Of a stretch of DNA of 64,000 bases, positions 18,035 through 44,461 are shown one piece after another. The DNA is from Nocardia nova SH22a. GTDB taxonomy: Bacteria; Actinomycetota; Actinomycetes; Mycobacteriales; Mycobacteriaceae. Position numbers and translations under genes: made by a program. A model generated the notes under the pieces. That model worked only from the letters and a program-made list of their open reading frames with translations. It ran no database searches and was not told the DNA's origin. Every line of letters begins with the position of its first letter. Position 1 is the first letter of the stretch. The DNA lies in NCBI RefSeq assembly GCF_000523235.1, contig NZ_CP006850.1, positions 4,650,001 to 4,714,000 of the forward strand, written 5' to 3'.

Positions 18035-19230
18035 GCCGCGCCTCCGCCCGCCCGGGCGCGCGCCAAACCCTCGTCCCGCAGATCCGCGAGGACGGTGTCG
18101 GTGTGCGCGCCCAGTCGCGGAGCCGGACCGGCCACATGTCCGGGGGTGCGCGAGAACCACGCGGGCGGGCCCGGAAAGCGGACGGGACCGTTCGGGGTGT
18201 CGACGGTTTCGAAGAATCCGACGGCGGCGAGGTGGTCGTTGTCGAACAGATCGGCCAGGGTGTTCACCGGGGCCGCCGGGATGTCGAGTGAACCCAGCAG
18301 TTCCAGCCATTGCGCGGTGGTGCGCTCGCGGAAGGTCTCGGCGAGCAGGGCGTAGACCTCGTCTATGCGGGCGGCGCGCTGGGCCAGGGTCGCGAATTCC
18401 TCGGTGGCCCAGACGGGACGGACCGCCGAGACGAAGGCGTTCCACTGTTTATCGTTGTAGACGAGTGCGGCCAGATATCCATCGGCGGTGCGGTAGGGCT
18501 TGCGATCGGGGGTGAGGGCGCGCGGATATCCGGGCGGCGCCGGGGCGGGATCGAACAGGGCCCCGGCCGCGTGCTCGACCAGCATGAACGCGGCCATGGT
18601 CTCGAACATCGCGACCTCGACCTCCTGGCCCTCGCCGGTGCGTTCGCGATGGAACAGCGCCATCATGGTGGCGTAGAGCGCGGTGAGCCCGGCGATCTTG
18701 TCGGCCATGATGGTGCCGACGTAGCCGGTGTGCCCGGTGAGCCGCTGCTGTACATAGGGCAGACCGCATTCGGCCTGGACGGTGTCGTCGTAGGCGGTGC
18801 GGTCGGCGTCGGGGCCGCGGCGGCCGTAGCCGTAGCAATTGGTGTAGACGATCGACGGATTGAGGGCGGCGACCGATTCGTAGCCGAAACCCAGCGCCGT
18901 GATCGCGCGCCCGCGCATCGAATGGATGAACACGTCACCGGTGCGGATCAGCTCGCGCAGGGCCGCGGCGCCGGATTCGCTGCGCAGATCCAGCACCACA
19001 CTGCGCTTACCGCGATTGACATTGACGAACACCCCGCCCATTCCGGGTTCGGGCCCGGCGGAGATGTAGCGGGTGTTGTCCCCGGCGGGCGGCTCGACCT
19101 TGATCACCTCCGCGCCCATGTCCGCCATGATCTGCGTGCAGTAGGGGCCCATGACCATCGCGGTCAGATCGATGACCCGCACTCCCGACAGCGGCCCCGC
19201 GGCCCGGGCAGAGGTATTCGGCGGCTGCAT
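18031..19230 (-). CDS. CaiB/BaiF family CoA transferase
   Basis: A 399-residue class III CoA transferase that moves CoA between carboxylic acids. Seen: GPLSGVRVIDLTAMVMGPYCTQIMADMGAEVIKVE at the N-terminus, NRGKRSVVLDL, TAYDDTVQAECGL holding the catalytic aspartate near residue 165, and a C-terminal GPPAWFSRTPG-GAHTDTVLADL segment (two parts). ATG at 19230 follows GGGAGG. It heads the minus-strand operon with the Cat1-like protein and crotonase and diverges from the acyl-CoA synthetase across an operator shared with two other promoters, so both CoA-activating activities are probably co-induced. Confidence 0.9.
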   Translation of the reverse strand: MQPPNTSARAAGPLSGVRVIDLTAMVMGPYCTQIMADMGAEVIKVEPPAGDNTRYISAGPEPGMGGVFVNVNRGKRSVVLDLRSESGAAALRELIRTGDVFIHSMRGRAITALGFGYESVAALNPSIVYTNCYGYGRRGPDADRTAYDDTVQAECGLPYVQQRLTGHTGYVGTIMADKIAGLTALYATMMALFHRERTGEGQEVEVAMFETMAAFMLVEHAAGALFDPAPAPPGYPRALTPDRKPYRTADGYLAALVYNDKQWNAFVSAVRPVWATEEFATLAQRAARIDEVYALLAETFRERTTAQWLELLGSLDIPAAPVNTLADLFDNDHLAAVGFFETVDTPNGPVRFPGPPAWFSRTPGHVAGPAPRLGAHTDTVLADLRDEGLARARAGGGAA

Positions 19231-19363
19231 GCTCGCGGGCCTCCCTGGTTCGAATTTCGCACCGGCGAATTCGGCGCGCGCCACGACGGGTGCCACGCCG
19301 ATGGGGCCCCATCGGCCGCACGGTCGATCGAACGGTCCTCGGGGGCAACGCCTTCAGGCTATC

Positions 19364-19398
19364 TGATGAATCTTTACAAGGATAGTGATATCAAGGTT
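19364..19398. promoter_or_regulatory. shared operator element, copy A
   Basis: ATCTTTACAAGGAT (19370-19383) is a near-palindrome whose reverse complement, ATCCTTGTAAAGAT, differs from copy C at 32088-32101 by one base. The following AGTGATATCAAGG also lines up with copies B (27983-28009) and C. It lies in the gap between the divergent CaiB transferase and acyl-CoA synthetase genes. The GntR regulator beside copy B is the candidate binder (inference). Confidence 0.6.
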
Positions 19399-19400
19399 CG

Positions 19401-20939
19401 GTGGGCACTGTAAACAGCGGGCGATTTCCCGCATCGATCGCCACGGTTCTCGATCCCGTGCTGTCCGCGCGACCGCGGGCGACCGCGATCGAGGCCGCGT
19501 CCGGCGCGTGGACCTACGCCGAACTCGACGAGCAAGCCGGGAGGGCGGCCGGTGCACTGTGGGCGCTGGGGGTGCGGCCTGGTGATCGGGTCGCCGCGTG
19601 CTTGCCCAACGACCTCGCGATCGTCGCGGCCTTCCACGGTGCGCAGCGCATCGGCGCGATCTGGTCCGGGATCGGTGAGGCGGCCGGTGCGGGCGAGCAA
19701 CAGTCACTGTGCGATCTGGTGGAACCGTCGGTGGTGCTCGCGGGACCGCGGTTCCGTGCCACGGTGCGCAATCCGGTGGATCCGGACCGGTGGGCGAATG
19801 CGCTCGCGTCCGCAGAGCCCGCGCCGCCCGTCGACATCGATCCGGACGCACCGGCGGGGATCGGTTTCACCAGTGGCACATCCGGACATCCGAAGGCCGT
19901 GGTGCACTCCCAGCGCGGCATGCTGCTGCCCGGCGCGGTGACGGTGGCGACCCGGGGCTGGGGTCCGGATCTACGCCGGGGTGACAGCTTCCCGCTCACG
20001 ATTCTGAACATGATGATCCTGTCCACCCTGACCACCGCCCAGGCCGGGGGCTGCGCGGTGATCATGGACCGACGCGATGCCGCCGGGGTCGCGGAATGGA
20101 TTGCCGCACACCGGGTCACGGTGTGGAACGGGGCGCCCGCGCAGATCTACGATCTCGCCCGGCGCGACGACGATCTGAGTTCGCTGCGGGAGGTGTGGAG
20201 CGGCGGCAGCGACACCCTGGACGCGGTGCGCACCGCCTTCGCCGACGCCCACGGCGTGATTCCTCGGGTCACCTACGGGCTCACCGAGGCGCCCACGGTG
20301 GTCTCGATCGATCCGGCCGGTTCGCAGTGGCGTTCGGGAACCAGCGGGCAGGTGCAGCCGCAGTTCGATGTGGCCGCCTATGACGATGCGGGCCGTCGGC
20401 TGCCGCCGGGCGAACCCGGCGAATTGCGTTTGGCGCCCGCCTCGTCCGGGCCGTGGGCGCATCGATGGGCGCCGTCGCTCGGGCACTGGGCCGACGGAGG
20501 CGTGCGGCCGCTGGACTCCGGTCCGCTGCCCACCGGCGATATCGGTACCGTCACCGACGACGGCTGGCTGCGCGTCATCGACCGCAAGAAGCTGGTGATC
20601 ATTCGCGGCGGGGCGAATGTCTATCCGCTCGAGGTGGAGCGGGTGATCGCCGCCCATCCCGAGGTCGCCGCGGTCGGGGTCTGCGCCCTGCCCGACGAGC
20701 GGCTGGGCCAGCGGGTCGCCGCGGTCGTCGAGAGTACCGGTCCCGCACTGGATTTCGCCACGCTCACCGAGCTGTGCCGACGTGAGCTGGCCGGGTACAA
20801 GGTTCCCGAATCGTGGACCCAGGTCGAGGCGCTGCCGGTCAACGCGATGGGCAAATTACAGCGCACCGCGCTGGCCGATCTGGTCCGGCAGGATCCGGTA
20901 CGGCCGTCCACCACCCGGAACCGAAGGGACGACGCGTGA
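19401..20939 (+). CDS. acyl-CoA synthetase (class I adenylate-forming, AMP-binding)
   Basis: A 512-residue enzyme that would activate a carboxylic acid to its CoA thioester via an acyl-AMP. Motifs in order: FTSGTSGHPKAVVHS (P-loop, A3) near residue 155, YGLTEAPT (A5) near residue 292, TGDIGTVTDDGWLRVIDRKK (A7-A8 hinge) near residue 380, and a C-terminal NAMGKLQRTAL with the catalytic lysine (A10). GTG at 19401 has no clear ribosome binding site, and the operator lies immediately upstream, so the transcript may be nearly leaderless. It is followed after 130 bases by an SDR. With the divergent CoA transferase it gives two routes to a CoA ester. Confidence 0.9.
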   Translation: MGTVNSGRFPASIATVLDPVLSARPRATAIEAASGAWTYAELDEQAGRAAGALWALGVRPGDRVAACLPNDLAIVAAFHGAQRIGAIWSGIGEAAGAGEQQSLCDLVEPSVVLAGPRFRATVRNPVDPDRWANALASAEPAPPVDIDPDAPAGIGFTSGTSGHPKAVVHSQRGMLLPGAVTVATRGWGPDLRRGDSFPLTILNMMILSTLTTAQAGGCAVIMDRRDAAGVAEWIAAHRVTVWNGAPAQIYDLARRDDDLSSLREVWSGGSDTLDAVRTAFADAHGVIPRVTYGLTEAPTVVSIDPAGSQWRSGTSGQVQPQFDVAAYDDAGRRLPPGEPGELRLAPASSGPWAHRWAPSLGHWADGGVRPLDSGPLPTGDIGTVTDDGWLRVIDRKKLVIIRGGANVYPLEVERVIAAHPEVAAVGVCALPDERLGQRVAAVVESTGPALDFATLTELCRRELAGYKVPESWTQVEALPVNAMGKLQRTALADLVRQDPVRPSTTRNRRDDA

Positions 20940-21069
20940 GCGGGCCTGTTCCCGATGCCGGTCCGCGGCGCCTGCGCCCGGCACTCACACTGGAGTGGCG
21001 AGCGAACAAGGCCATGCGCCCACAGGCAACACTCCCCACTCGTGGGGCTACAGAAGGGATGAGGCCCCG

Positions 21070-21846
21070 ATGAGTGAGCAACAGTTGCCCGGCACCGAGC
21101 TGTTCGATCTGAAAGGACGGGTCGCGATCGTGACCGGCGCGTCCTCGGGCCTCGGCGCGGCCGTCGCGCGGAGCCTCGCGGCTCTCGGCGCACATGTCGC
21201 GGTGGTAGCCCGGCGAGCCGACAGATTGGCCGAATTGACGCAGGAGACAGGTGGTTTCGCGATCGCCGCAGACCTGTCGGACCTGGACCGGATCGGCGAG
21301 GTGGTGGACGCGGCCGCCACCGAACTGGGACCGCCGGAGATCCTGATCAATGCGGCGGGCAGCATGTTCACCGAGGAACGCGCCGAATCCGAACCGCTGC
21401 CCGCGATCCGCTCCACCCTGGAGTTGAACCTCGCCGCACCACTTCTGCTGTCGCAGGCGGTATTCGAGCACATGCGTGCGGCCGGGCGCGGCAGCATCGT
21501 CAACATCTCCTCGATCAGCGGGCGGGTCGGCATCCCCGGCATCCCACAGGCCTCCTACGCGGCCAGCAAGGCCGGATTATCCGGTCTCACCGCCGAATTG
21601 GCCGTGCAGTGGGCGCGGCACTCGATCCGGGTGAACACCGTGGCGCCCGGCTTCTTCCGCAGCGAGATCACCGCACCGCTGTACGAGAACGAACGCTCCC
21701 TGGAATACCTGCGCCGCAACACTCCCCTGCCGCGCCACGGCACCCCGGAGGATGTGGTCGGCGCCGTAGCCTGGCTCGCGGGTGACGCCTCGGCCTATGT
21801 CACGGGCCAGACCATCGTGGTCGACGGCGGCTGGACCGCCCGCTGA
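21070..21846 (+). CDS. short-chain dehydrogenase/reductase
   Basis: A 258-residue classical SDR with TGASSGLG near residue 20, NAAG near residue 93, the catalytic triad SISG...YAASK near residues 145-162 and an IVVDGGW C-terminus, the 3-oxoacyl-ACP reductase-like subgroup. It would oxidise a hydroxyacyl-CoA or ring alcohol, or run in reverse. ATG at 21070 follows GAGG at 21061-21064. It shares direction with the acyl-CoA synthetase. A degenerate second copy of its 3' end lies 70 bases downstream. Confidence 0.88.
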   Translation: MSEQQLPGTELFDLKGRVAIVTGASSGLGAAVARSLAALGAHVAVVARRADRLAELTQETGGFAIAADLSDLDRIGEVVDAAATELGPPEILINAAGSMFTEERAESEPLPAIRSTLELNLAAPLLLSQAVFEHMRAAGRGSIVNISSISGRVGIPGIPQASYAASKAGLSGLTAELAVQWARHSIRVNTVAPGFFRSEITAPLYENERSLEYLRRNTPLPRHGTPEDVVGAVAWLAGDASAYVTGQTIVVDGGWTAR

Positions 21847-21914
21847 CGGTTCGCACCACCCCGGCGCAGTGACCGAGCGATGACCCCCGAGCGGACGATC
21901 GCTCGACCGCCCGG

Positions 21915-22043
21915 CTCCCTCGAGTGCCTGCGCCGCAACACTCCCCTGCACCCCCGAGGACGTCGTAGGCGCCGTCACCTGGCTGGCCGGTGACGCCGCG
22001 GCCGACGTGACTGACCAGACCATCGTGATCGCGGCTGGACCGC
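21915..22043 (+). pseudogene. degenerate partial duplicate of the SDR 3' end
   Basis: This stretch repeats bases about 21696-21841 of the preceding SDR. Matching blocks include CTGCGCCGCAACACTCCCCTG, identical in both (21 bases, described here by position: 21708-21728 and 21927-21947), GTAGGCGCCGTCACCTGGCT against GTCGGCGCCGTAGCCTGGCT, and GACCAGACCATCGTGATC against GGCCAGACCATCGTGGTC. Small deletions (including about ten bases after the first block) destroy the frame. It is a tandem partial duplication that has decayed, and it ends beside the GGCTC satellite. Confidence 0.8.
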
Positions 22044-22055
22044 ACGTGCCGCAGC

Positions 22056-22200
22056 GGCTCGGCTCGGCTCGGCTCGGCTCGGCTCGGCTCGGCTCGGCTC
22101 GGCTCGGCTCGGCTCGGCTCGGCTCGGCTCGGCTCGGCTCGGCTCGGCTCGGCTCGGCTCGGCTCGGCTCGGCTCGGCTCGGCTCGGCTCGGCTCGGCTC
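22056..22200. repeat. pentanucleotide satellite (GGCTC)29
   Basis: Twenty-nine uninterrupted copies of GGCTC, 145 bases, between the convergent SDR and acyl-CoA dehydrogenase genes. All frames across it translate to the same five-residue repeat (Leu-Gly-Ser-Ala-Arg or Ala-Glu-Pro-Ser-Arg), and no ribosome binding site or coding flank supports a protein. Arrays this perfect and long are expected to be unstable in copy number. The 165 bases after it, up to the acyl-CoA dehydrogenase stop, hold nothing I can identify. Confidence 0.95.
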
Positions 22201-22365
22201 GGGACAGCGTCGGTCCGGGGCCGCGTGCAACGCAACACCGTCCGACCCTCATAGCAGAACGGTGTGGCTCAGAATGCCTTGCCGGATGAGCAAAACAGAG
22301 GTGCGCCAGTGGCCGAGAGGTTCGCGGACGCGTACTCGACCGCGTGACGTTCTGCCTCCAATGCC

Positions 22366-23469
22366 TCAAGGTGTGAAGGCCGTGTCTCGGTATCGTGCGG
22401 CCAACTCGGCCCGGTGCTGGGTTGGTGATCCGTAGAGGGATCGGTTGAGGGTCGCGCGTTCGAGGTAGCGGTGGATGCCGCTCTCCCATGTGTAGCCCAT
22501 TCCGCCGTGCAGTTGTACGGCTTTGCCCGCGATGTCGACGGCCGCGGCGCAGGTGTAGGACTTGGCGCGGGCGGCGGCGATCCAGGCGTCCGGGTCGTCG
22601 CGGACTTCGGCGGTGACGGCGGCGTCTACGAGTTGCCCGGCGATGCGCAGGCTCACCAGCATGTCGGCGCAGGCGTGTTTCACGGCCTGGAAGGAGCCGA
22701 CCGGGCGGCCGAATTGCGCACGGGTGCGGACATGTTCGACGGTGGTCTCGAGCGCCGCCTCGGCCAGGCCGAGACTGTCGATCGCGGTGGCGACGGTCCG
22801 GCGCCGGGCGACCGCGGCCAGGGGGTCAGCCCCTGCGCGCCCCCACCGCCACACCGCATCGTCGCCGACGACCGCGGCCTCGGCGGACAGTGTGCCGAAG
22901 TCACGGGTGGTGTCCAGGCACGGCTGGGCAGCGACGGATATTCCAGGGGCTTCCGGCCGTGTGGCAACCAGAACGGTCGCCCCGTCGGTATCGCGTGCGG
23001 GGAGCATGACGGTGGTCGCCGCGGTGATGTCGGCGGTGAATTCCGTTGTGCCCGTGAGGCTCGTACCGCCACTGCCGCGCGAGATCGTGAACGGTGGGTT
23101 GTCCGCGGTGCTACCACTCATGGCCAGCACCGGGACCGCCCCGCCGGTCGCGGTGTCGCGCAACAACCCGTCACGCCCGGGGCCCGGCTCTGCGTGAGCG
23201 AGTGCGGCCACCGCCACCGCGACCGAGGCGTACGGGCTGCGGGTCAGGGCCCGCCCCATTTCCCGCAGCACCACTGCCACTTCGGCGAAAGTCACTCCGG
23301 CGCCGTCGAATTCACTGCCGATCTCCAGCCCGGGCCAATCCGCCGCCACGATCGCCGACCACTCCCGCACTGTTCCCGGTGCGGTCGCGGTGAGAATATT
23401 CCGCGCGACGGTACGCAATTCGTCGTGGAGTTCGGCGAATTCGCTCGCCCGCGCCAACTGCCCGGTCAC
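22366..23469 (-). CDS. acyl-CoA dehydrogenase (small-subunit type of a heteromeric pair)
   Basis: A 367-residue acyl-CoA dehydrogenase-like protein. The N-terminal helical domain and the middle beta domain are weakly conserved and the usual WCQGFSEP/TEP flavin motif is missing, while the C-terminal part is clear: RTRAQFGRPVGSFQAVKHACADM and LHGGMGYTWESGIHRYLERA, which carries a TWE glutamate. This lopsided conservation is typical of the partner subunits in alpha2-beta2 dehydrogenases of steroid side-chain catabolism. It follows the complementary gene at 23838-25013 in the same direction. GTG at 23469 was chosen. Confidence 0.82.
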   Translation of the reverse strand: MTGQLARASEFAELHDELRTVARNILTATAPGTVREWSAIVAADWPGLEIGSEFDGAGVTFAEVAVVLREMGRALTRSPYASVAVAVAALAHAEPGPGRDGLLRDTATGGAVPVLAMSGSTADNPPFTISRGSGGTSLTGTTEFTADITAATTVMLPARDTDGATVLVATRPEAPGISVAAQPCLDTTRDFGTLSAEAAVVGDDAVWRWGRAGADPLAAVARRRTVATAIDSLGLAEAALETTVEHVRTRAQFGRPVGSFQAVKHACADMLVSLRIAGQLVDAAVTAEVRDDPDAWIAAARAKSYTCAAAVDIAGKAVQLHGGMGYTWESGIHRYLERATLNRSLYGSPTQHRAELAARYRDTAFTP

Positions 23470-23837
23470 CGCCGCACCTTCCGTTCACTACAGCAGGCCG
23501 GGCTTGCTACGGCCGAGCGCAAACTCTCCGCCCACGACGCTCGCCCGTCCATCACAGCTCCCACTCTGTCCAGCAACAGATCCCGGCCCACAACGAGGCC
23601 GCGCCTCCGCCCTGGCACTGCCCCGCTCATCACCGCACCCGCCCCTCACCGCGACCGGCCCGACCCACAGTCGCAGACGGCGCACTCCTCGCCCGCGATA
23701 CTCGCCCGCTCGTCACCGCAGCCGACGCTTGCCGCATGCCGCCCTGGGCCCCTGTCGACGATGGGGCACTCACCGCACACGATCCTCGCCCGCGCATGAC
23801 GGCTCCCACCGGTTCCGCAAGGTTCCCGCCCCGCTCA
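23470..23837. other. 368-base intergenic stretch with degenerate repeats
   Basis: No gene is supported here. The 19-base string CCCCGCTCATCACCGCACC occurs at 23621-23639 and again at 23829-23847, where it covers the stop codon of the next dehydrogenase. Looser relatives (CTCGCCCG followed by an ATCAC-, GTCAC- or ATGAC-like core and a C-rich tail) occur near 23540, 23700 and 23785. The region looks like decayed tandem copies of that gene's 3' end, or of a repeat that seeded there. Confidence 0.5.
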
Positions 23838-25013
23838 TCACCGCACCACCGGTTCCCGGGGCAGCCCGAGGCCGCGCTCCGCGATGATGGTGCGCTGGAT
23901 TTCGCTGGTACCACCGGGAATCGTCCATTCCCAGGAGCCGAGGAAGTCGAGCATCCATGCTCCCGATTCCCAGCCGCTGGAGCGTGGAGTGCGGAGCACC
24001 GTGTGAGTGCTCGTTCCGGCGATCTCGGTCCCGAAGTCCATCAGCCGCTGCAGTAGTTCGCTGTAGTAGAGCTTCACGATCGACGCGTCGGCGGGTCCCG
24101 GTTCGTCGGCGGCGACCAGGTCGGCGCACAGTCCGCGCAATCCGGTGAGCTCGGTTTCGAGCCGCGCGAGCCGATCGCACACGATCGGATCGTCCAGTGC
24201 ACTACTACCGTCCGGCCGGGGCTGCGCGCACATCCGGACCAGCCGCCCGAATCCACCGTGGGCCAATCGCTCGGCCAGTTCCAGCATCGTCATCCCGCGT
24301 TCGGCGCCGAGGGTCTGCTGGGCGACCTGCCAGCCCTTGTTCTCCGGCCCGATCAGATCGGCGGCCGGGATCTCGACATCGTCGAGGAAGATCTCGCAGA
24401 AATGCCACTCGCCGGTCGCCTGCCGGATCGGCCGGACCTCGACACCCGGTGAGCGCATATCCATCAGGAAGTACGAAATACCGTGCCGCTGCGGCGCATC
24501 CGGATCGGTGCGGGCCAGGAGCAGGCACCAGTCGGCGAAGGCCGCGCCACTGGCCCACAGTTTGGTGCCGTTGACGACGTAGGTGTCCCCGCGCCTGCGC
24601 GCCGAGGTCGACAACGCCGCCAGATCGGATCCGGCGCCGGGTTCGGAGAAGCCCTGGCACCAGATCTCACCGTCGAGGATCGCGGGCAGGTGCCGCCGCC
24701 GCTGCTCGTCGGTGCCCGCGGCGAGCAATGTGGCCGCCGCGTGGTGGATGGATACGAAGGCCAGCACCAGCCGTGGCGCGTCGTGCGCGGCCAGTTCCGA
24801 ATACAGCACCGTCTGCTGTTCGACCGGCATCCCGCCGCCCCACTGCGCCGGCCAGTGCGGCACCGCGAATCCGCCCGCGCGCAAGCGCTGGAACCACTCC
24901 TGCTGGAAGGCCACGAATTCGGCGTCGGTGACGCCGGTCTGGGCGTCGCGCCAGTCCGGCGGGATGTTGGCGGCACACCAGTCGCGCACCCGCTGCCGGA
25001 ATTCGGATTCCAT
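23838..25013 (-). CDS. acyl-CoA dehydrogenase (FadE type)
   Basis: A 391-residue FAD enzyme that introduces an alpha,beta double bond into an acyl-CoA. Seen: FAVPHWPAQWGG, WCQGFSEPGAGSDLAAL near residue 120, VNGTKLWASGA, VRPIRQATGEWHFCEIFLDDVEIP, and the C-terminal WTIPGGTSEIQRTIIAERGLGLPR. With the partner at 22366-23469 it probably forms a heteromer of the kind described for cholesterol catabolism (FadE/ChsE). The gene ends in the sequence repeated at 23621-23639. It starts 3 bases after the crotonase stop, so it belongs to the same minus-strand operon. Confidence 0.9.
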   Translation of the reverse strand: MESEFRQRVRDWCAANIPPDWRDAQTGVTDAEFVAFQQEWFQRLRAGGFAVPHWPAQWGGGMPVEQQTVLYSELAAHDAPRLVLAFVSIHHAAATLLAAGTDEQRRRHLPAILDGEIWCQGFSEPGAGSDLAALSTSARRRGDTYVVNGTKLWASGAAFADWCLLLARTDPDAPQRHGISYFLMDMRSPGVEVRPIRQATGEWHFCEIFLDDVEIPAADLIGPENKGWQVAQQTLGAERGMTMLELAERLAHGGFGRLVRMCAQPRPDGSSALDDPIVCDRLARLETELTGLRGLCADLVAADEPGPADASIVKLYYSELLQRLMDFGTEIAGTSTHTVLRTPRSSGWESGAWMLDFLGSWEWTIPGGTSEIQRTIIAERGLGLPREPVVR

Positions 25014-25016
25014 CGG

Positions 25017-25817
25017 CTACCTCCCCGCCCGCGCGCGCAGCGCCAGCAGTCGTTCGCGATGTTCCGGTGAGCACATGGTGACCGATTCGGCGGCGAATCC
25101 CGCCTGCATCGCCCCGCTCAACGCCTGCGACAGGTACATGTTCGCCACCCGTTTGGTCGCGCGCAGCGCGGGTGCGGGCTGCGCGGCCAGCCGCTGCGCC
25201 AGCTTCGCGGCGTTCTCGGCGAGTTCGTCGGGTTCGGAGATCGAGGTGGCCAGGCCGAGATCCACGGCGGTGGGCGCGTCGATGCGGTCACCGGTGTAGA
25301 GGTAGATGCGCGAGCGCAGCAGCGGAGTGAGCAACGGCCAGAAGGCCGCCCCGCCGTCCCCGGCGACCAGCCCGACACTCACATGCGGGTCGGCCAGATA
25401 CGCGCTGCGTGACATCAGCACCACATCCGACAGCACGGCGACGCTGGCCCCGAGCCCCATCGCCGGGCCGTTGACCGCCGCGATCACCGGCAGCGGGAAA
25501 CGCAGCATCTCCTCGATGATCTGCGCGCCCTCGCGCAGGCTCTCCTCCCGCGCCACCGGATCGTCGAGGAAGGAGGTGATCCAATCCAGATCACCGCCCG
25601 CGCTGAACGCCCGCCCGGCGCCGGTCACCACGACCACCTTCGCGCCGGTGTCGGCGGCCAGCTGCCGCCATACGTTCGCCAGCGCCCAGTGCAGCGGTTC
25701 GTTCACCGCGTTCAGTTCCGCGGGACGATTGATGGTGACCGTCCGGACGGCGCCGTCGGCCGTCACGGTCAGCTCATCGGGCAGGTCGTAGATCGAATGA
25801 TCGTCCGTCACAGGCAC
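25017..25817 (-). CDS. crotonase-family protein without the two hydratase glutamates
   Basis: A 266-residue crotonase-fold protein. AFSAGGDLDWITSFL near residue 70 and NGPAMGLGASVAVLSDVV near residue 115 form the CoA and oxyanion site, but Ser replaces the first catalytic Glu, and DPHVSVGLVAGDGG has His where the second Glu should be. True hydration is therefore doubtful; isomerase, retro-aldol or hydrolase chemistry are alternatives. The start is GTG at 25817 (a second GTG at 25811 is possible; neither has a good ribosome binding site). It lies between the two dehydrogenase pairs in one operon. Confidence 0.82.
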   Translation of the reverse strand: MPVTDDHSIYDLPDELTVTADGAVRTVTINRPAELNAVNEPLHWALANVWRQLAADTGAKVVVVTGAGRAFSAGGDLDWITSFLDDPVAREESLREGAQIIEEMLRFPLPVIAAVNGPAMGLGASVAVLSDVVLMSRSAYLADPHVSVGLVAGDGGAAFWPLLTPLLRSRIYLYTGDRIDAPTAVDLGLATSISEPDELAENAAKLAQRLAAQPAPALRATKRVANMYLSQALSGAMQAGFAAESVTMCSPEHRERLLALRARAGR

Positions 25818-25851
25818 TTACCGCCATTTCGCATATCGCGCAGAGTTGCAT

Positions 25852-26814
25852 TCACTGCCGACTCGCAGCCGGTGCGTCCCGGTCGGCGTCGAACAGCCCG
25901 GACAGTCCCCGGGTGCCCACCTGCCGGGTCAGTTGATCACGGGTGCCGGAACTCGCCCAGGGCAACCGGCGCAGCGGCAGGCTGTAGCGCGACAGCCACG
26001 ACAGTGTCGATTCATCGCAGAATCCGACCGCACCGTGCAATTGATGGGCGACGCGGAAGACGATCTCGGCGGCGTCCAACGCGGCGGTGCGCGCGGCCAG
26101 CGCGTCCGCCAATGCCTCGGCCCCGCCGCCGCCCGCACTCCACAGCGCGTACTTGGCCAGGACCTCGACACCGCTGCGCTCGACCTCGGCGTCGGCGAGC
26201 TGGAACTGCACACTCTGGAATTTCGCCAGCGGCTGCCCGAACTGGGTGCGCAGCAATACATGTGAGCGAGTGAGTTCGATCGCGCGGTCGAGCATCCCCA
26301 GCAGGGTCCAGCACCCCAGGGTCAGGGCGAGTGCCGCGTCCGTACCGCCGGCGCCCTCGACCGGGGTCAGCTCGAGCGGCGCCACGAACGCGGAGGTTCG
26401 CGGCGGCACACCGTCGGGTATCGCCCGCGCGGTGAAGCGCGCACCCTCGAAAGTGACCGCGGCCCAGCGCAGATCGAGATCGGCGACCGCGGCGCGCGGA
26501 CCGGATTCGGTCACCACCAGCAGACCGTCCACGTCGAGATCGACCGGGCGGGACAGCCGTTCGGCGACCGGATACGGCAGCCCCCAGTACCCCGCGCTGC
26601 GGCACAGCGCACCGGCCGCCTCGAGATCGTCGGCGTCGCGGCGCGGGTCCAGTTCCCACGCGCCGAGTCCGGTCAGGACGGGGTCGACGGCCTCGGCGCG
26701 CCGGGCGGGTTCGGCCTCCGCGGCTTCCAGCAGCCGATCGCCACCGGCGGTCTCGAACGCCCGGATCGCCTCGCGGCCGTAATCGGCCGCCTCCTTGCTC
26801 AATTCGATGTTCAC
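25852..26814 (-). CDS. acyl-CoA dehydrogenase-like subunit
   Basis: A 320-residue acyl-CoA dehydrogenase-family protein, shorter than the usual 380. The flavin-binding TEP-type motif is absent, but SHVLLRTQFGQPLAKFQSVQFQLADAEVE and LHGAVGFCDESTLSWLSRYSLPLRRLPW are diagnostic of the family's C-terminal helical domain. As with 22366-23469, it looks like the degenerate subunit of a heteromer, the partner being 26811-27965, to which it is coupled by a GTGA overlap. The second Glu-containing motif reads CDEST. Confidence 0.82.
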   Translation of the reverse strand: MNIELSKEAADYGREAIRAFETAGGDRLLEAAEAEPARRAEAVDPVLTGLGAWELDPRRDADDLEAAGALCRSAGYWGLPYPVAERLSRPVDLDVDGLLVVTESGPRAAVADLDLRWAAVTFEGARFTARAIPDGVPPRTSAFVAPLELTPVEGAGGTDAALALTLGCWTLLGMLDRAIELTRSHVLLRTQFGQPLAKFQSVQFQLADAEVERSGVEVLAKYALWSAGGGGAEALADALAARTAALDAAEIVFRVAHQLHGAVGFCDESTLSWLSRYSLPLRRLPWASSGTRDQLTRQVGTRGLSGLFDADRDAPAASRQ

Positions 26815-27965
26815 GATGCCGCCAGCATGGCTCGGGACAACAACAGTCGCTGCATTTCGATACTCCCGGAGGCGATGGTCGCGGCCTGCGAATACCGCCA
26901 GTGATCGGCTACCGCGCGACGGAACCAGCTCTGCCGCTCGGTCGACGGCTCACCCGACAGCTGATCGGCCACTTCGGCGAGGACCTCGGCACTGTCCTGG
27001 TCCAGTCGCGTGACCGCGATCCGGTAGGCCGCGGCGTCGCCGGGTGCCACCCGGTCCTCGGCCTGCATCGCGACCACCCGATAGGCGAGCAGCCGGGCCC
27101 GGCGGCAGTGCACCAGCATCCCGGCCCAGCGATCGCGCAGTCCGGCGGGCAGCTCGTCCCATCGCGGTCCCAGCACCTCGGGCGCGGCACGCAGCAGGCG
27201 CTCGCAGCGGGCGTAGCGGGCGATGCCGACCCGTTCGAAGGCCAGTACCTCCTGGACCACCTTCCAGCCCTCGCCGACCGTGCCGAGCACATCCGCCTCG
27301 GTGACGCGCAGATCGTCGATGAACACCTCGTTGAGGTGGTGCGGGCCCATCATCGCCCGGATGGGACGCACCTGGATGCCCGGCGCCGACATCGGCACCA
27401 GGAAGATCGTCAGGCCCTGCTGCTTGCGTTCGCCGGTGCCGGTGCGCGCCAGCAGGAAACACCACTGCGCCATGGTGGCGTAGGAGGTCCAGATCTTCTG
27501 CCCGCTCACCAGCCACCCGTCCCGGTCGCGGCGCGCGGTGGTGCGCAGCGACGCCAGATCCGATCCGGCCTCGGGTTCGCTGAAGCCCTGGCACCAGATC
27601 ACCTCCCCGCGCGCGATGGGCGGCAGATGGGTGCGCTGTTGTTCGGGCGTGCCGTGGCGCATGACGGTCGGCCCCACCCAGTTGACGCCCATGTACTGCG
27701 CGCCGCGCGGTTCGTGATGAGCCCACATCTCCTCGCGGACGGCGGTCTGCTCCCACACCGATCCGCCCCGGCCGCCGAATTCGGTCGGCCACGCCGCACA
27801 CAGCAGCCCGCGCTCGGCGAGCAGCCCGCAGAAGCGTTGCGCGATGTCGAGATCGGCCGGATCGTCGGTGAAGGCGCCGAGGAAGTCAGCGGGGACATGT
27901 TCGGTCACCAAGTGCCGCAACTCATCTCGGAGTTCGGTGGCGGCCTCCCCCATCGTGAAGTCCAT
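26811..27965 (-). CDS. acyl-CoA dehydrogenase (FadE type)
   Basis: A 384-residue FAD enzyme. Seen: CAAWPTEFGGRGGSVWEQ, WCQGFSEPEAGSDLASLRTTA near residue 125, VSGQKIWTSYATMAQWCFLLART, VRPIRAMMGPHHLNEVFIDDLRV, and ASGSIEMQRLLLSRAM at the C-terminus in place of the usual GGTSEIQ. ATG at 27965 was chosen; an upstream TTG at 27983 lies inside the operator. It is the first gene of the long minus-strand operon running down to 22366 (two dehydrogenase pairs plus a crotonase) and diverges from the GntR regulator across operator copy B. Confidence 0.9.
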   Translation of the reverse strand: MDFTMGEAATELRDELRHLVTEHVPADFLGAFTDDPADLDIAQRFCGLLAERGLLCAAWPTEFGGRGGSVWEQTAVREEMWAHHEPRGAQYMGVNWVGPTVMRHGTPEQQRTHLPPIARGEVIWCQGFSEPEAGSDLASLRTTARRDRDGWLVSGQKIWTSYATMAQWCFLLARTGTGERKQQGLTIFLVPMSAPGIQVRPIRAMMGPHHLNEVFIDDLRVTEADVLGTVGEGWKVVQEVLAFERVGIARYARCERLLRAAPEVLGPRWDELPAGLRDRWAGMLVHCRRARLLAYRVVAMQAEDRVAPGDAAAYRIAVTRLDQDSAEVLAEVADQLSGEPSTERQSWFRRAVADHWRYSQAATIASGSIEMQRLLLSRAMLAAS

Positions 27966-27976
27966 CACCCGACGGT

Positions 27977-28033
27977 ACTTCAATCCTCATAAGGATAGCA
28001 ATATTTGAATGGTCAAGATCGGCTGGTTAGAAT
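27977..28033. promoter_or_regulatory. shared operator element, copy B, with GntR promoter
   Basis: ATCCTCATAAGGAT (27983-27996) is an imperfect palindrome followed by AGCAATATTTGAATG, which matches copy C (AACAACACTTGAATG). TTGAAT at 28005-28010 and TAGAAT at 28028-28033 are separated by 17 bases and make a good -35/-10 promoter for the regulator gene at 28060. A protein bound at the palindrome could control this promoter and the leftward dehydrogenase operon at once. Confidence 0.65.
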
Positions 28034-28059
28034 TTCCGGATGACAACCAGGCAGCCCGC

Positions 28060-28866
28060 GTGACGAGCCCACGGCGCGGGCGGATCCCGCAGCGCCGCAT
28101 CGCCGAAACCGTCGCCTCCGAGCTGCGCACCCGCATCCTGTCCGGCGACGACGACTATCGTCTCCCCACCCAGGACCAGCTGGTCAAGGAATTCGGCGTG
28201 AGTTATCCGTCGATCCGGGAATCGCTGCGGATTCTCGAGACCGAGGGACTGGTCACGGTGCGGCGCGGCAATGTCGGTGGCGCCGAGGTCCACCGGCCCG
28301 ACGAATCCTCGGCCGCCTACCATCTGGGGCTGGCATTGCAGGGCGCGCGGGTCACCCTCGGCGATCTGGCCGCCGCGTTGCAGATGCTCGAACCCCTGTG
28401 CGCCGCCGAGTGCGCGCGCCGCCCCGACCGCGCCGAGGTCGTCGTGCCCGCGCTCGAGGCCAATATCCACGCCTGCGAGCAGGTGGTGGGCGACGGTGTG
28501 GAATTCACCCGCACCGCACGCGAATTCCACGATCTCGTGGTCGCCTTCACCCCCAACGCGACGGTGCGCTGCGTGGTGTCGAGTCTCGTCACGCTGTGGT
28601 CGGCACAGGAACAGGCCTGGGCCGAAACGCTGACCCGCCGCGGTGAATACCCGTCCAAGCCCCAGGCCCACGACGCCGCCCGGGTGCACGCCCGCCTGGT
28701 CACCGCCATCGCCGACGGCGACGACGCGGAGGCCGAACGACTGGCCCGGTCGCACCTGCGCGCCACCCAGTCGGTGGTGCTCGAACGCTACGACTCCGGG
28801 ATGGTCAACGCCTCCTCGGACATGGCCCGCCAAGCCATCGCCGCCGGACCGCGCCTGCGCCTGTAG
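28060..28866 (+). CDS. GntR-family regulator, FadR subfamily (FCD domain)
   Basis: A 268-residue regulator. The winged helix lies at about residues 10-75 (RRIAETVASELRTRILSGD, QLVKEFGVSYPSIRESLRILETEGLVTVRRG), and the C-terminal all-helical FCD ligand domain contains TAREFHDLVVAFTPN and HARLVTAIADGDDAEAERLARSHL, with the histidines that usually bind a metal. I chose GTG at 28060 because a promoter (-10 at 28028-28033) lies upstream of it but downstream of the alternative ATG at 28009. Its position next to operator copy B makes it the best candidate to control copies A, B and C. Ligand probably an acid or CoA ester of the pathway. Confidence 0.88.
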   Translation: MTSPRRGRIPQRRIAETVASELRTRILSGDDDYRLPTQDQLVKEFGVSYPSIRESLRILETEGLVTVRRGNVGGAEVHRPDESSAAYHLGLALQGARVTLGDLAAALQMLEPLCAAECARRPDRAEVVVPALEANIHACEQVVGDGVEFTRTAREFHDLVVAFTPNATVRCVVSSLVTLWSAQEQAWAETLTRRGEYPSKPQAHDAARVHARLVTAIADGDDAEAERLARSHLRATQSVVLERYDSGMVNASSDMARQAIAAGPRLRL

Positions 28867-28896
28867 CGGCCGACGCGGTACGCCACAGCGTCCGGA

Positions 28897-29739
28897 TCAG
28901 GTGTGATAGCGCTGCGCGACGGCCGCGAACTCGTCGAGGATGCGCAGCGATTCCGATTCCGGCACGGTCGGCAAGGAGAGGGTCACCCGCTGCACGCCTG
29001 CTTCGGCATAGGCATCCAGCAGTGCGGGATCCGGTGCGGCCGGGGTGATCGCGACCGGAATTCCCGCCTCGCGGGCCGCGACGAGCTGAGCCGGTACCTG
29101 CGCCGGATCGGCGACGCCGTTGGGCACCCAGCCCAGCCCGAGCCGGATGGCGCGCTGCGCCGCGGCGGCGCCACCACCGATGAAGATCGGCGGATGCGGC
29201 CGCTGCACCGGTTTGGGCCAGGCGAAGATCGGATCGAAATCGACGAAGCGGCCGTGATATTCGGCCAGGTCCTGCGTCCAGATAGCGCGGATGGCGGCCA
29301 GTTGCTCGTCGAGCAGGGCGCCGCGGGTACGCGGATCGGTGCCGTGATCGGCCATCTCCTCGCGGTTCCAGCCCACGCCGACGCCGAATACGACCCGCCC
29401 ACCGGACAGGTGGTCGAGGGTGGCCACCTCCTTGGCGGTGTGAATCGGATCGCGTTGGATCAGCAGGGTCACGCCGGTGCCCAGCACCAGCCGATCGGTC
29501 ACCGTCGCGATCGCGGCCAGGGCGACGAACGGGTCGAAGGTGCGGTAGTACACCCGCGGTAGCTCCCCGCCGCCCGGATAGGGCGATTCCCGGCTCGCGG
29601 GGATATGGGAGTGCTCGGCCAGGAACAAGGATTCGAAACCGCGCTCTTCCAGCGCGGTGCCGAGTACGCGGGGGGCGATGCCCTCGTCGGTCAGGAAGGT
29701 GTTGACTCCGATCTGCATGTAGAGGCCGAACCTCGCCAC
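28897..29739 (-). CDS. LLM-class F420-dependent oxidoreductase
   Basis: A 280-residue TIM-barrel protein of the luciferase-like family. LAEHSHIPASRESPYPGGGELP, ATVTDRLVLGTGVTLLIQRDPIHTAKEVATLDHLSGGRVVFGVGVGWNREEM (positions about 29350-29560) and PPIFIGGGAAAAQRAIRLGLGWVP are typical of the mycobacterial F420-dependent subgroup. It would catalyse a hydride transfer to a ketone, alcohol or enone. GTG at 29739 is the first start; an ATG at 29718 is possible. It converges with the GntR gene with 30 bases between the stops. Confidence 0.87.
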   Translation of the reverse strand: MARFGLYMQIGVNTFLTDEGIAPRVLGTALEERGFESLFLAEHSHIPASRESPYPGGGELPRVYYRTFDPFVALAAIATVTDRLVLGTGVTLLIQRDPIHTAKEVATLDHLSGGRVVFGVGVGWNREEMADHGTDPRTRGALLDEQLAAIRAIWTQDLAEYHGRFVDFDPIFAWPKPVQRPHPPIFIGGGAAAAQRAIRLGLGWVPNGVADPAQVPAQLVAAREAGIPVAITPAAPDPALLDAYAEAGVQRVTLSLPTVPESESLRILDEFAAVAQRYHT

Positions 29740-29982
29740 CGCGACCGGCTATTCCCGGGTCGGCGTGTCCGGAATCGCGTATCCGCCCGAATCCCCGAAT
29801 TCACCGGCCGGTGCGGAAACGATGACCACCACGCGGCACGGCATCACCGCCCGGGCGAGGCCGATCCGGCGCGGCGAAACACCCGTATCGGCCCGAATTG
29901 CCCGGCTGGATGAGCCACGTGCGAAACAATTGTCACCATCGGCGCGGCATCGCCCAGCCGTGCCCTCCGAGAGGAGTGTGAC

Positions 29983-30678
29983 ATGCAACCCGAGGCATCG
30001 TCGTATCCGGTCCACGTCCGCGGCGACCTGGATCCGAATGTGTCGCGCTGGCAGTGGATCGTCAAGTGGCTGTTGGCCATTCCGCACTACATCGTGTTGT
30101 TCTTCCTGCATATCGCGTATTCGGTGGTGACGATCATCGCCTTCTTCGCGATTCTGATCACCGGCCGCTATCCGCGCGGGCTGTTCGACTTCAATGTCGG
30201 CGTCCTGCGCTGGTCGTGGCGGGTGCGCTTCTACGCGCTCTCGGCGCTGGGCACCGACCGGTATCCGCCGTTCAGCCTGCGTGCCGACGAGAACTATCCG
30301 GCCGATCTCGACGTCGAGTATCCCGAGCGGTTGCATCGCGGACTGGTCCTGATCAAGTGGTGGCTGCTGGCGATCCCGCAGTACCTGATCGTGTGGGCGT
30401 TCGTCGGCGGCGCCCGGTACTGGGGCGGTGACGACGACGGAATGGCGATGGTCTGGATTCCGCTGCTGGGCATCCTCGTCCTGATCGCCGCCATCGCACT
30501 GCTGTTCACCGGCCGCTATCCGACCGGCCTGTTCGCCTTCGTCGTCGGCGTGAACCGGTGGATCCTGCGCGTGCGGGCCTACGCCTCGCTGATGCGCGAC
30601 GAATATCCGCCGTTCCGGCTGGACCAGGGGCCGCGCGATCCCGAAATCGGCACGCGCCCGGCCGAATCCGGCGCCTGA
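29983..30678 (+). CDS. DUF4389 membrane protein with internal duplication
   Basis: A 231-residue membrane protein with two homologous halves. WLLAIPHYIVLFFL...TGRYPRGLFDFNVGVLRW...DRYPPFSL (residues about 27-100) is repeated as WLLAIPQYLIVWAF...TGRYPTGLFAFVVGVNRW...DEYPPFRL (about 120-215). Each half has about two hydrophobic helices separated by the TGRYP loop. The DUF4389 family has no assigned function. The ATG follows GAGAGGAG. The preceding 240 bases hold no other gene. It converges head-on with the MFS gene: the two stop codons are adjacent. Confidence 0.87.
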   Translation: MQPEASSYPVHVRGDLDPNVSRWQWIVKWLLAIPHYIVLFFLHIAYSVVTIIAFFAILITGRYPRGLFDFNVGVLRWSWRVRFYALSALGTDRYPPFSLRADENYPADLDVEYPERLHRGLVLIKWWLLAIPQYLIVWAFVGGARYWGGDDDGMAMVWIPLLGILVLIAAIALLFTGRYPTGLFAFVVGVNRWILRVRAYASLMRDEYPPFRLDQGPRDPEIGTRPAESGA

Positions 30679-32019
30679 TCAATCCCCGGCCGGTTCCGGC
30701 AGTGCCCGCGAGGCCGCCGGAACCGCCCGGGGATCGACCTCCCGCACCGGGCGCAGCGCGTGCCGGGGCGGGCGCGCCGCGACGGCCAGCACCACCGATC
30801 CGGCCAGCAATCCCGTCACCAGATGCACCGGGATCTCGTAGGAGTGCGTGGCGTCCACGATGCGCCCGGTCAGATACGGGCCGAGCCCGCCCATCGTTCC
30901 CGCCACCAGTTGCCCCGCGCCGAACGCCCGCGGGAAGTTACGCGCCCCGTAGTACCGGCCCAGGGCGACCGCGACCGTCGGCACCAGCATGCCGTACCCC
31001 GCGCCGAACAGGATCGAGTACGCGTACAGCGGCAGACTCGACCGCGCTGCCGCGAAGACGACCGACCCGGCCGTCATCGCCGCCGTCGACGCGATCAGCA
31101 CATAATAGGGACTGATCCGATCATTGAAGCGCGACAACAGGATTCCCGAACAGGCCGCCACCCCCGCGGCGATCCCCAGCGCACCGGAGGACACCTGCTC
31201 GCTCACCCCCACACTGCGCAGATACAGCACCTGATACGCGGCGTAGGTGCCCAATGACCACGCCTCGATACCGAAGACGACGAACAACATCCAGAACACC
31301 GGACTGCGCAGGATCCGGCGCACCGGCTGCTGCACCGTGCCGATCACATCCGTCCCACCGGCGGCCGGAATCTCCCGCCCGGCCACGCCGTCCACCCACT
31401 GCCCGGCCGAACGTGGATCGTCGCGCAGCCACAGCGCGGGCACCGCAAGAACCGCGATGATCACCGCGAGCGCGAACATCGCATGCCGCCAGCCCAGTTC
31501 GCGCACCAGCCATCCCATCAGCGGCGCGAAGATCAGCCCGCCGAATCCGGCGCCGGAGTTCACGAATCCCATCACCACCGCGCGCCGGCCCAGAAACCAC
31601 TTCTGCACCAGCGTCGCGGCCGGGGTGTATCCCATGAACGAGTCGGCCACGGTCAGCGCAATACCGAACACGATCATGAACTCGACCGGATTGCGGACCA
31701 GCCCGGTCAGCGCGGTGCACACGGCCGTGGTCGCCCCGCCGATCAGCACGATCGGCCGCACCCCGAATCGCGACACCAGCCACCCCGTCAAGGGGCCCAT
31801 CCCGGCCGAGAGCAGACCGCGCACGAGCAGTGCCGCGGACACCACGCCCAGGCTCCACCCGACGTCGGGCACCATCGCCGCCAGTAGCGGGCCGACCACG
31901 AAATAGACCGCGCCGACAGCGGTTCCGTACTGCAGGAACGCGATCGCGCCCTGCCGGTATCCGGCGAAGGTGATCAGATCGGAGAAGCGGAAGCGGGGGG
32001 TCGCGACGACGACGGGCAC
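30679..32019 (-). CDS. MFS transporter, oxalate/formate-antiporter-like
   Basis: A 446-residue transporter with about twelve membrane helices. The central pattern of a long N-terminal half, cytoplasmic loop (LRDDPRSAGQWVDGVAGRE) and a second half beginning SPVFWMLFVVFGIEAW is typical of the OFA/monocarboxylate branch of the major facilitator superfamily; the GWLVSRFGVRP loop is the MFS signature between helices 2 and 3. GTG at 32019 is preceded by GGAGGAGG. It diverges from the 13-gene catabolic run across operator copy C, so it probably imports the substrate, an acid. Confidence 0.87.
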   Translation of the reverse strand: MPVVVATPRFRFSDLITFAGYRQGAIAFLQYGTAVGAVYFVVGPLLAAMVPDVGWSLGVVSAALLVRGLLSAGMGPLTGWLVSRFGVRPIVLIGGATTAVCTALTGLVRNPVEFMIVFGIALTVADSFMGYTPAATLVQKWFLGRRAVVMGFVNSGAGFGGLIFAPLMGWLVRELGWRHAMFALAVIIAVLAVPALWLRDDPRSAGQWVDGVAGREIPAAGGTDVIGTVQQPVRRILRSPVFWMLFVVFGIEAWSLGTYAAYQVLYLRSVGVSEQVSSGALGIAAGVAACSGILLSRFNDRISPYYVLIASTAAMTAGSVVFAAARSSLPLYAYSILFGAGYGMLVPTVAVALGRYYGARNFPRAFGAGQLVAGTMGGLGPYLTGRIVDATHSYEIPVHLVTGLLAGSVVLAVAARPPRHALRPVREVDPRAVPAASRALPEPAGD

Positions 32020-32081
32020 GATGAGCCTCCTCCCCCGCGGACGACGTCGCCGCAGGTGATGATCGATGGCCCGCGCATGCT

Positions 32082-32138
32082 ACGTCAATCCTTGTAATGA
32101 TAACAACACTTGAATGCTAGCTAAGTGAGAACTACGCT
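32082..32138. promoter_or_regulatory. shared operator element, copy C, with catabolic promoter
   Basis: TCAATCCTTGTAATGAT (32085-32101) followed by AACAACACTTGAATGC aligns over about 30 bases with copy B and, in the palindrome, with copy A. TTGAAT at 32110-32115 and TACGCT at 32133-32138, 17 bases apart, could be the -35/-10 of the rightward run starting at 32291. It sits between the divergent MFS gene and that run. Confidence 0.6.
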
Positions 32139-33886: not shown

Positions 33887-33890
33887 GCGT

Positions 33891-34739: not shown

Positions 34740-34759
34740 GACGCCGTGGAGGAGAAATC

Positions 34760-36136: not shown

Positions 36137-36169
36137 CCCGATTCTCCTTCAGTCACAAGGACTTTTCGA

Positions 36170-37993: not shown

Positions 37994-38025
37994 CCGCGAA
38001 ACCCCCGACGCGAGAGGACAATTCG

Positions 38026-40640: not shown

Positions 40641-40663
40641 GTCACGAGGAGGACGGACAGCTC

Positions 40664-42800: not shown

Positions 42801-42829
42801 AAAATGTTCGGTAGCAAGGGAGTCCGGCA

Positions 42830-44417: not shown

Positions 44418-44461
44418 GCCCCGAGCGCAGCGCGGTACCGCATCGACAGACAGGAGCCCCG

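What the first reader, a model, noticed from the sequence alone, without database searches (positions are those of the whole stretch)
19364..32138. Three divergent promoters share a long operator: a GntR-controlled catabolic regulon
Copies A (19370-19398), B (27983-28010) and C (32088-32115) share the palindrome ATCYTT..AAGGAT form and the downstream AGCAATATTTGAATG-like block. They precede the CoA transferase/acyl-CoA synthetase, the dehydrogenase operon/GntR gene, and the MFS/13-gene run. B and C have the same TTGAAT -35 placed identically. One regulator could therefore switch uptake, activation and degradation together. Repeated sites are seen; the regulator assignment is inference.
Basis: partly seen in the sequence, partly recalled or inferred. 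Interest (0 to 1): 0.7.

Follow-up and report, generated by a model that had tools for sequence, protein, structure and literature searches.

The report
Shared switch for a Nocardia degradation cluster
Three promoters in a Nocardia-like soil bacterium carry related copies of one control site, and comparison with dozens of relatives says the neighbouring regulator gene probably switches a whole degradation pathway through it: a solid but fairly ordinary kind of gene control with an unusual site design.

Summary
The sites are real; A is weaker than claimed. B (27982-28009) and C (32087-32114) match one 28-base pattern exactly and are its only matches (up to 3 mismatches) in the 8.35-Mb genome. 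A shares only the palindrome; its downstream block is a different conserved element. A looser pattern finds exactly A, B and C genome-wide. The case rests on relatives. A B-type site lies upstream of gntR in 43 of 65 loci, the window included. Sites recur at the same three modules (dehydrogenase operon/gntR; CoA-transferase/acyl-CoA synthetase; Rieske/Baeyer-Villiger run), also where gntR is on another contig or 60-100 kb away. Of 99 genomes, 21 of 23 with the gntR orthologue and 0 of 76 others have the motif. The site is nested in back-to-back promoters, so bound protein should block both. Best reading: an autoregulated FCD-type GntR repressor of a catabolic regulon. Binding, ligand and substrate are untested. 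Less ordinary: no FadR-type GT/AC boxes, a third alternating half-site, two altered helix residues, and a micro-ORF coupled to gntR. New member of a known kind.

The parts
19369..19384 (+). Site A: palindrome AATCTTTACAAGGATA between CoA-transferase and acyl-CoA synthetase (first dyad only)
   Evidence: orthologous sites
19385..19396 (+). Conserved block after A, GTGATATCAAGG; possibly an extended -10 of the synthetase promoter (my reading)
   Evidence: TGATATCAA in 26 of 28 distinct A regions printed
18031..19296 (-). CoA-transferase family III gene (start uncertain)
   Evidence: Pfam PF02515
19401..20939 (+). AMP-binding acyl-CoA synthetase gene
   Evidence: Pfam PF00501
23838..25013 (-). 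Acyl-CoA dehydrogenase 3
25017..25817 (-). Enoyl-CoA hydratase
25852..26814 (-). Acyl-CoA dehydrogenase 2 (partner-type subunit; PDB matches 5ol2, 6wy8_A, 4x28_D)
26811..27965 (-). Acyl-CoA dehydrogenase 1; the ATG starts 6 nt after the -10, so probably leaderless
27972..27977 (-). -10 box TACCGT of the dehydrogenase promoter (-35 TTGCTA at 27996-28001)
   Evidence: TANNNT at this place in 42 of 43 B sites
27982..28006 (+). Site B operator: half-sites 27982-27988, 27991-27997 and 28000-28006
28005..28033 (+). gntR promoter: TTGAAT 28005-28010, 17 bp, TAGAAT 28028-28033
   Evidence: TANNNT at 15-20 bp in 37 of 43 B sites
28040..28063 (+). Micro-ORF MTTRQPA*, probably leaderless; its TGA overlaps the gntR GTG
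   Evidence: coupled arrangement in 44 of 65 loci
28060..28866 (+). gntR: GntR wHTH plus FCD domain; the proposed regulator
30679..32019 (-). MFS transporter gene
   Evidence: Pfam PF07690
32077..32082 (-). -10 box TAGCAT of the MFS promoter (-35 TTGTTA at 32101-32106)
32087..32111 (+). Site C operator: half-sites 32087-32093, 32096-32102 and 32105-32111
32110..32138 (+). Promoter of the right-hand run: TTGAAT 32110-32115, 17 bp, TACGCT 32133-32138
32291..46029 (+). Run of 12 genes: beta-propeller (SGL), SDR, Rieske oxygenase, Baeyer-Villiger monooxygenase, SDR, TPP enzyme, aldehyde dehydrogenase, SnoaL, SDR, SnoaL, TauD, SDR

Best explanation
A, B and C are operators of one local regulon run by the neighbouring FCD-type GntR protein. 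The binding core is an inverted repeat, AATCCTT-2 bp-AAGGATT. B and C add a third half-site in alternating orientation 9 bp on. At B and C the operator sits inside two back-to-back promoters: the first two half-sites fill the spacer of one, and the third overlaps the -35 boxes of both. Bound protein would silence the dehydrogenase operon and gntR itself (B), and MFS and the Rieske/BVMO run (C), at once; at A it would block the CoA-transferase/synthetase module. A pathway intermediate in the FCD domain would release it. Shown: sequence, genome-wide specificity, conservation, promoter overlap, co-inheritance. Inferred: binding by GntR, repression rather than activation, the ligand, and the substrate (perhaps a polycyclic ketone or terpenoid/steroid-like compound).
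For: Only A, B and C in the genome fit. Site upstream of gntR in 43 of 65 loci, and the perfect palindrome in all 5 mycobacterial loci, which are not among those 43. Same three modules carry sites across genera. Scattered modules keep sites: dehydrogenase operon in L149 and L150 (scores 40.6, 44.4); in one-contig G051 the CoA-transferase is 90 kb from gntR. Motif in 21 of 23 genomes with the gntR orthologue, 0 of 76 without; CoA-transferase orthologue in 22 genomes, all among those 23. -10 boxes flank the operator in 37 and 42 of 43 B sites. Helix residues Asp39 (62 of 64) and Tyr49 (63 of 64) replace the Arg residues of NanR and PdhR, in line with a site lacking the usual GT/AC boxes.
Against: No binding or expression data. 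A is only just above chance by sequence and lacks the third half-site. L082 has a gntR orthologue (73% identity) and no site within 350 bp; three Frankia-type loci have degraded sites; G095 has neither motif (up to 2 mismatches) nor CoA-transferase, and G091 has only weaker sites. 4 of 39 named genomes searched had no match at up to 2 mismatches, and a few matches in other genomes lie on other contigs than gntR without my checking their genes. Part of the co-occurrence is trivial since B adjoins gntR. The MFS is rarely beside C in relatives. Species are related, so counts are not independent.
Confidence: 0.85

Rival explanations
1. Another transcription factor binds A-C, and gntR is merely one of its targets.
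For: No binding data. A LysR gene lies at 51033-51938. Binding-site position cannot by itself name the protein.
Against: gntR is the gene that stays beside the site in mycobacterial loci where the Rieske/BVMO run was not found nearby. Motif and gntR co-occur. The LysR gene was not tested for co-occurrence.
Confidence: 0.07
2. GntR binds A-C but acts mainly as an activator or roadblock-type modulator.
For: Site A lies just upstream of a possible extended -10 rather than clearly over promoter boxes (my reading).
Against: At B and C the half-sites fill the spacer and overlap the -35 boxes, a position that favours steric repression.
Confidence: 0.05
3. The shared letters are promoter boxes of one kind, not an operator.
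For: B and C share identical promoter spacing. The third half-site partly coincides with -35 boxes. The bare palindrome is not significant in the window alone.
Against: The palindrome lies between -35 and -10 of the left-hand promoter, where promoters are not conserved. In 19 inverted C sites conservation is high over columns 1-27 and falls to a mean 0.3 bits from column 29. The motif is confined to genomes with gntR.
Confidence: 0.02
4. Chance similarity of A-C.
For: A alone is weak.
Against: Genome-wide uniqueness and conservation at orthologous promoters.
Confidence: 0.01

Closest known systems
FadR-subfamily (FCD) GntR local repressors (survey PMC4494728: sections 10 and 17 and search passages read)
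   Same: GntR wHTH plus FCD, own gene beside the operator, palindromic site in a divergent intergenic region, weaker extra half-site near the palindrome.
   Different: Site lacks the TKGT/ACMA boxes; Asp and Tyr replace two Arg residues of NanR and PdhR in the helix region; orthologous group not found described in my searches.
E. coli NanR (PMC8012715: passages read; PDB 6on4, 6wfq)
   Same: Closest solved relative by sequence (E 1.1e-7) and first in the fold search; a three-part operator.
   Different: NanR uses three direct GGTATA repeats and a 32-residue N-terminal extension; here the half-sites alternate and the match starts at residue 9 here against 27 in NanR, so no such extension.
Leaderless coupled small ORFs of mycobacteria (PMC4633059: passages read)
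   Same: Predicted leaderless start, RTGA overlap with the downstream gene, junction kept while the peptide changes.
   Different: Here before a regulator gene in several genera; no transcript or ribosome data.

Membership tests
FadR-subfamily (FCD) GntR regulator | GntR wHTH and FCD domains | tested here: met
   PF00392 and PF07729 above their cut-offs
FadR-subfamily (FCD) GntR regulator | Fold of solved members | tested here: met
   Model mean pLDDT 83.9; best Foldseek matches NanR, CGL2915, VanR, probability 1.00, but TM 0.34-0.52 for the best ten, so domain placement differs
FadR-subfamily (FCD) GntR regulator | Metal-binding His residues of the FCD domain (recalled) | tested here: inconclusive
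   His157, His210 and His232 are each present in 64 of 64; that they are the ligands, and the acidic ligand, were not checked
FadR-subfamily (FCD) GntR regulator | Operator with TKGT/ACMA boxes (PMC4494728) | tested here: not met
   A-C are AATCCTT..AAGGATT types; the survey itself names exceptions such as NanR and BioR
FadR-subfamily (FCD) GntR regulator | Operator at its own gene | tested here: met
   43 of 65 loci
FadR-subfamily (FCD) GntR regulator | Specific DNA binding released by a ligand | not testable with these tools
   needs EMSA and ligand assays
NanR-type cooperative operator | Three direct repeats and an N-terminal extension | tested here: not met
   alternating half-sites; no extension in the alignment
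Leaderless coupled small ORF | Stop codon overlapping the next start (RTGA) | tested here: met
   28060-28063 GTGA; 44 of 65 loci
Leaderless coupled small ORF | Transcript starts at the ATG | tested here: inconclusive
   -10 ends 6 nt before the ATG; no start-site data

The most novel reading that the evidence does not exclude
This GntR group reads DNA with a rewired helix region (Asp and Tyr where NanR and PdhR have Arg) and recognises an alternating three-half-site operator. A dimer can sit on either of two overlapping dyads (AATCCTT-AAGGATT or AAGGATT-GC-AATACTT), and different promoters use different dyads: the first at A and in mycobacteria, both at B and C, mainly the second before gntR in the N. 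carnea/fusca group. One regulator would then repress its modules to different degrees.
Probability: 0.35. Interest if true: 0.55.

Novelty: new member of a known kind. Interest (0 to 1): 0.42.

Why it matters
It assigns a likely regulator and operator to an apparently uncharacterised catabolic regulon of Nocardia, Rhodococcus and relatives (heteromeric-type acyl-CoA dehydrogenases, CoA activation, Rieske and Baeyer-Villiger oxygenases). It gives a searchable motif that marks regulon genes even when they have moved away from the regulator, and an orthologous family in which operator and helix residues both depart from the FadR-type pattern, which is useful for the question of how GntR proteins recognise DNA.

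Tried and rejected
(1) Palindrome alone as evidence: rejected; in the window 9 matches against 5.1 expected. (2) A as a full copy: rejected (4 mismatches; own conserved block). (3) Antisense control of gntR by the inverted C site of other species: in the 9 loci looked at (of 19) some have a TTG...TANNNT pair pointing towards the 3' end of gntR, but no consistent ORF follows, and in L046 and L070 an inverted repeat lies there (read by eye); dropped. (4) A steroid 9-hydroxylase identity for the Rieske enzyme: not supported; best PDB matches are carnitine monooxygenase and aromatic dioxygenases. (5) Substrate: not settled; the BVMO is below the NCBIfam PtlE cut-off (654.3 of 1100 bits), nearest to PDB 5mq6, and its 120 listed relatives carry general names, among them cyclohexanone monooxygenase and neopentalenolactone D synthase. 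(6) Literature: eight searches; six motif strings gave 0 papers, and the listings showed no title or abstract about this regulator. Only open-licence PMC text is held, so this is weak evidence of absence. (7) Structure prediction and fold search only confirmed the family.

Known flaws. In one search the query labelled SDRa was out of frame, so its rows mean nothing and are not used; the ends of several other query ORFs were mechanical. In one search three loci (L025, L027, L032) were translated on the wrong strand; they were turned round and left out of the 64-row counts, as were L026 and L028 (distant paralogues). 'gntR orthologue' in the 99-genome test means 49% identity or more, a line drawn after seeing the list; the tool's own E-value line gave 29 of 99 genomes. 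Reversed-pattern control hits: 2 of 99 genomes, 2 of 39. The 19 inverted C sites were found with a matrix that includes the third half-site, which favours conserved columns. The regular expression preselects A-like sites. In one search the 9 loci classed 'uORF other' come from a first-match rule: one search shows that in 8 of them a short ORF after a TANNNT ends 23 nt before gntR, and in L064 one is coupled. The published-sequence loci include several strains of one species (N. carnea, N. wallacei, N. abscessus), so counts are not independent.
Full report
WHAT IS THERE. The window is a 64-kb piece of an 8.35-Mb single-contig genome. The closest gntR relatives in named genomes (96-97% identity over the best segment) are from Nocardia elegans, cerradoensis, nova, kruczakiae, aobensis, mikamii and a Nocardia sp.. 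At the stated coordinates the sites read: A GAATCTTTACAAGGATAGTGATATCAAGG (19368-19396), B CAATCCTCATAAGGATAGCAATATTTGAA (27981-28009), C CAATCCTTGTAATGATAACAACACTTGAA (32086-32114). B and C fit one 28-base pattern with no mismatch, and nothing else in the window or genome fits it with up to 3 (reversed-pattern control 0). A fails that pattern: it shares the palindrome, not the downstream block. A looser pattern returns exactly A, B and C genome-wide, and a dyad-only pattern returns 7 places, three of them A, B and C within 12.7 kb. In the window alone the bare palindrome is unremarkable (9 found, 5.1 expected), and A scores only slightly above the null maximum on a matrix built from B sites (17.9 against 15.1). 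The case for A is evolutionary.

GENES. Pfam gives: CoA-transferase III | A | AMP-binding synthetase; three acyl-CoA dehydrogenases and an enoyl-CoA hydratase | B | gntR; luciferase-type gene and MFS | C | beta-propeller, SDR, Rieske oxygenase, Baeyer-Villiger monooxygenase, SDR, TPP enzyme, aldehyde dehydrogenase, SnoaL, SDR, SnoaL, TauD, SDR. Dehydrogenase 1 is nearest in the PDB to 4x28 and 6wy8/6wy9; dehydrogenase 2 also matches these entries, second and fourth in its list; that these are heteromeric steroid-type enzymes is recalled. The monooxygenase is nearest to 5mq6 and to the NCBIfam model for neopentalenolactone D synthase, below that model's cut-off. A polycyclic ketone or terpenoid/steroid-like substrate is my inference.

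CONSERVATION OF THE SITES. The gntR protein found 65 loci in named genomes; one, L097, is a weak partial match and was left out. Of the other 64 plus the window, 43 of 65 carry, within 350 bp upstream of gntR, a B-type site with up to 3 mismatches. The 22 that do not are 13 Nocardia loci in which gntR is not beside the dehydrogenase operon (N. carnea, N. fusca and others), 8 mycobacterial and Frankia-type loci, and L082. The 5 mycobacterial loci have the perfect palindrome CAATCCTTAYAAGGATTG; the 3 Frankia-type loci are degraded; L082 has nothing. Mapping window proteins onto 86 loci and scanning these with the matrix shows sites at the same three modules: dehydrogenase 1/gntR, upstream of the SGL-Rieske-BVMO run, and between CoA-transferase and synthetase. 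A-type sites in Actinomadura (L065, L076, L096) and Parafrankia (L145) are closer to the perfect palindrome than the window's A, which ties A to B. Of 28 distinct A regions printed (43 loci given, several from the same genomes, preselected by an A-like expression) 26 keep TGATATCAA after the palindrome; L146 and L147 do not. An MFS match next to C was seen, apart from the window, only in L033 (short) and L041, so the uptake part of the regulon is the least supported.

TRANS CONTROL. In some Nocardia the modules are scattered. In N. carnea (L149) and N. jinanensis (L150) the dehydrogenase operon lies away from gntR but keeps a strong site (scores 40.6 and 44.4). In one-contig genome G051 gntR is at 271.8 kb, the CoA-transferase at 181.8 kb, and motif matches are at 164.6 and 256.1 kb; in G031 gntR and CoA-transferase are about 62 kb apart; in G003, G004, G014, G015, G024, G030 and G055 they are on different contigs, whose true distance is unknown. 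Across 99 genomes, the window's own included, the motif (up to 2 mismatches) is found in 21 of 23 genomes with a gntR homologue of 49% identity or more and in 0 of 76 others; the reversed-pattern control hit 2 of 99. The CoA-transferase orthologue occurs in 22 genomes, all among those 23. The exceptions are G091, which has a weaker A-type site at its CoA-transferase (L169), and G095. The Fisher value (1.6e-19) ignores kinship, and part of the association is trivial because B adjoins gntR; the A-type sites and the scattered modules are the non-trivial part. In a second set, 35 of 39 genomes reached through named loci had a match at up to 2 mismatches to a slightly looser pattern; 4 had none, and 2 had a control hit.

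PROMOTERS AND MECHANISM. In 43 B sites a TANNNT lies 15-20 bp after the TTG box on the gntR side in 37, and at the matching place on the dehydrogenase side in 42; the background is 0.0014 per position. In the window both TTGAAT boxes are followed after 17 bp by TAGAAT (B) or TACGCT (C); the opposite promoters read TTGCTA-18-TACCGT and TTGTTA-18-TAGCAT. The operator therefore lies within one promoter and over the -35 boxes of both. I infer steric repression with autoregulation, released by a ligand in the FCD domain. For A the mode is less clear: the palindrome is just upstream of a conserved TGATATCAA that could be an extended -10 for the synthetase (my reading).

OPERATOR DESIGN. Half-sites resembling AATCCTT occur three times in alternating direction at 9-bp steps in B and C, and twice in A. 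In 19 loci the C site is inverted relative to the run it serves. Over these, the first, second and third half-site columns carry on average 1.96, 1.85 and 1.83 bits, and columns 29-60 only 0.31. Two cautions: the sites were found with a matrix that includes these columns, and part of the third half-site doubles as promoter boxes, so its role as a protein contact is not proven. A survey of GntR sites reports additional half-sites 7-12 nt from site centres (PMC4494728, section 17), so this is a known theme. The survey gives TKGT/ACMA as the FadR-subfamily consensus (section 10), which these sites lack. The Arg residues that NanR and PdhR have at the aligned positions are Asp39 (62 of 64) and Tyr49 (63 of 64) here. 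I read this as matched change of protein and site; it is correlation only.

MICRO-ORF. Between the gntR -10 and gntR lies MTTRQPA* (28040-28063), starting 6 nt after the -10 and ending in the GTGA that holds the gntR start. By the script's rule 44 of 65 loci have such a coupled micro-ORF, 7 to 22 codons long with varying peptides but the same junction; 7 have a leaderless gntR instead, 1 a leaderless longer gntR, 9 another arrangement and 4 none. This is the 'coupled' class described for mycobacteria in PMC4633059 (passages read).

VERDICT. It is an orthologous group of a known kind of local regulator, with an atypical operator; interest is moderate.

Noticed in passing
28040-28063: Probably leaderless 7-codon ORF whose TGA overlaps the gntR GTG; coupled arrangement in 44 of 65 loci with varying peptides.
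   Followed up: yes
L046, L047, L050, L051, L094 and 14 further loci, upstream of SGL: The C operator is inverted relative to the window's C, so the run is driven by the other face of the same element.
   Followed up: partly
L054, L056, L057, L071 and relatives, about 90 bp upstream of gntR: Where gntR has left the dehydrogenase operon its promoter keeps mainly the second dyad, AANTATTGCAATCNTT type, rather than the first.
   Followed up: partly
L132 about 3030 and L141 about 2980; L044 and L066 9897-9949: Doubled sites: a second A-like copy about 30 bp upstream of A, and a second partial B copy 24 bp downstream of B.
   Followed up: no
L043:577, L044:732, L066:708, L084:488: A further strong site (scores 30.7-44.6) about 9-10 kb from gntR at a promoter whose genes I did not identify.
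   Followed up: no
38862-45289 and 18031-19296: TPP enzyme, aldehyde dehydrogenase, TauD-type dioxygenase and CoA-transferase III (matches include 2-hydroxyacyl-CoA lyases and formyl-CoA transferases) would fit an alpha-oxidation-like step; speculation.
   Followed up: no
28060-28866: His157, His210 and His232 of GntR are each present in 64 of 64 aligned proteins, possibly the FCD metal site.
   Followed up: no
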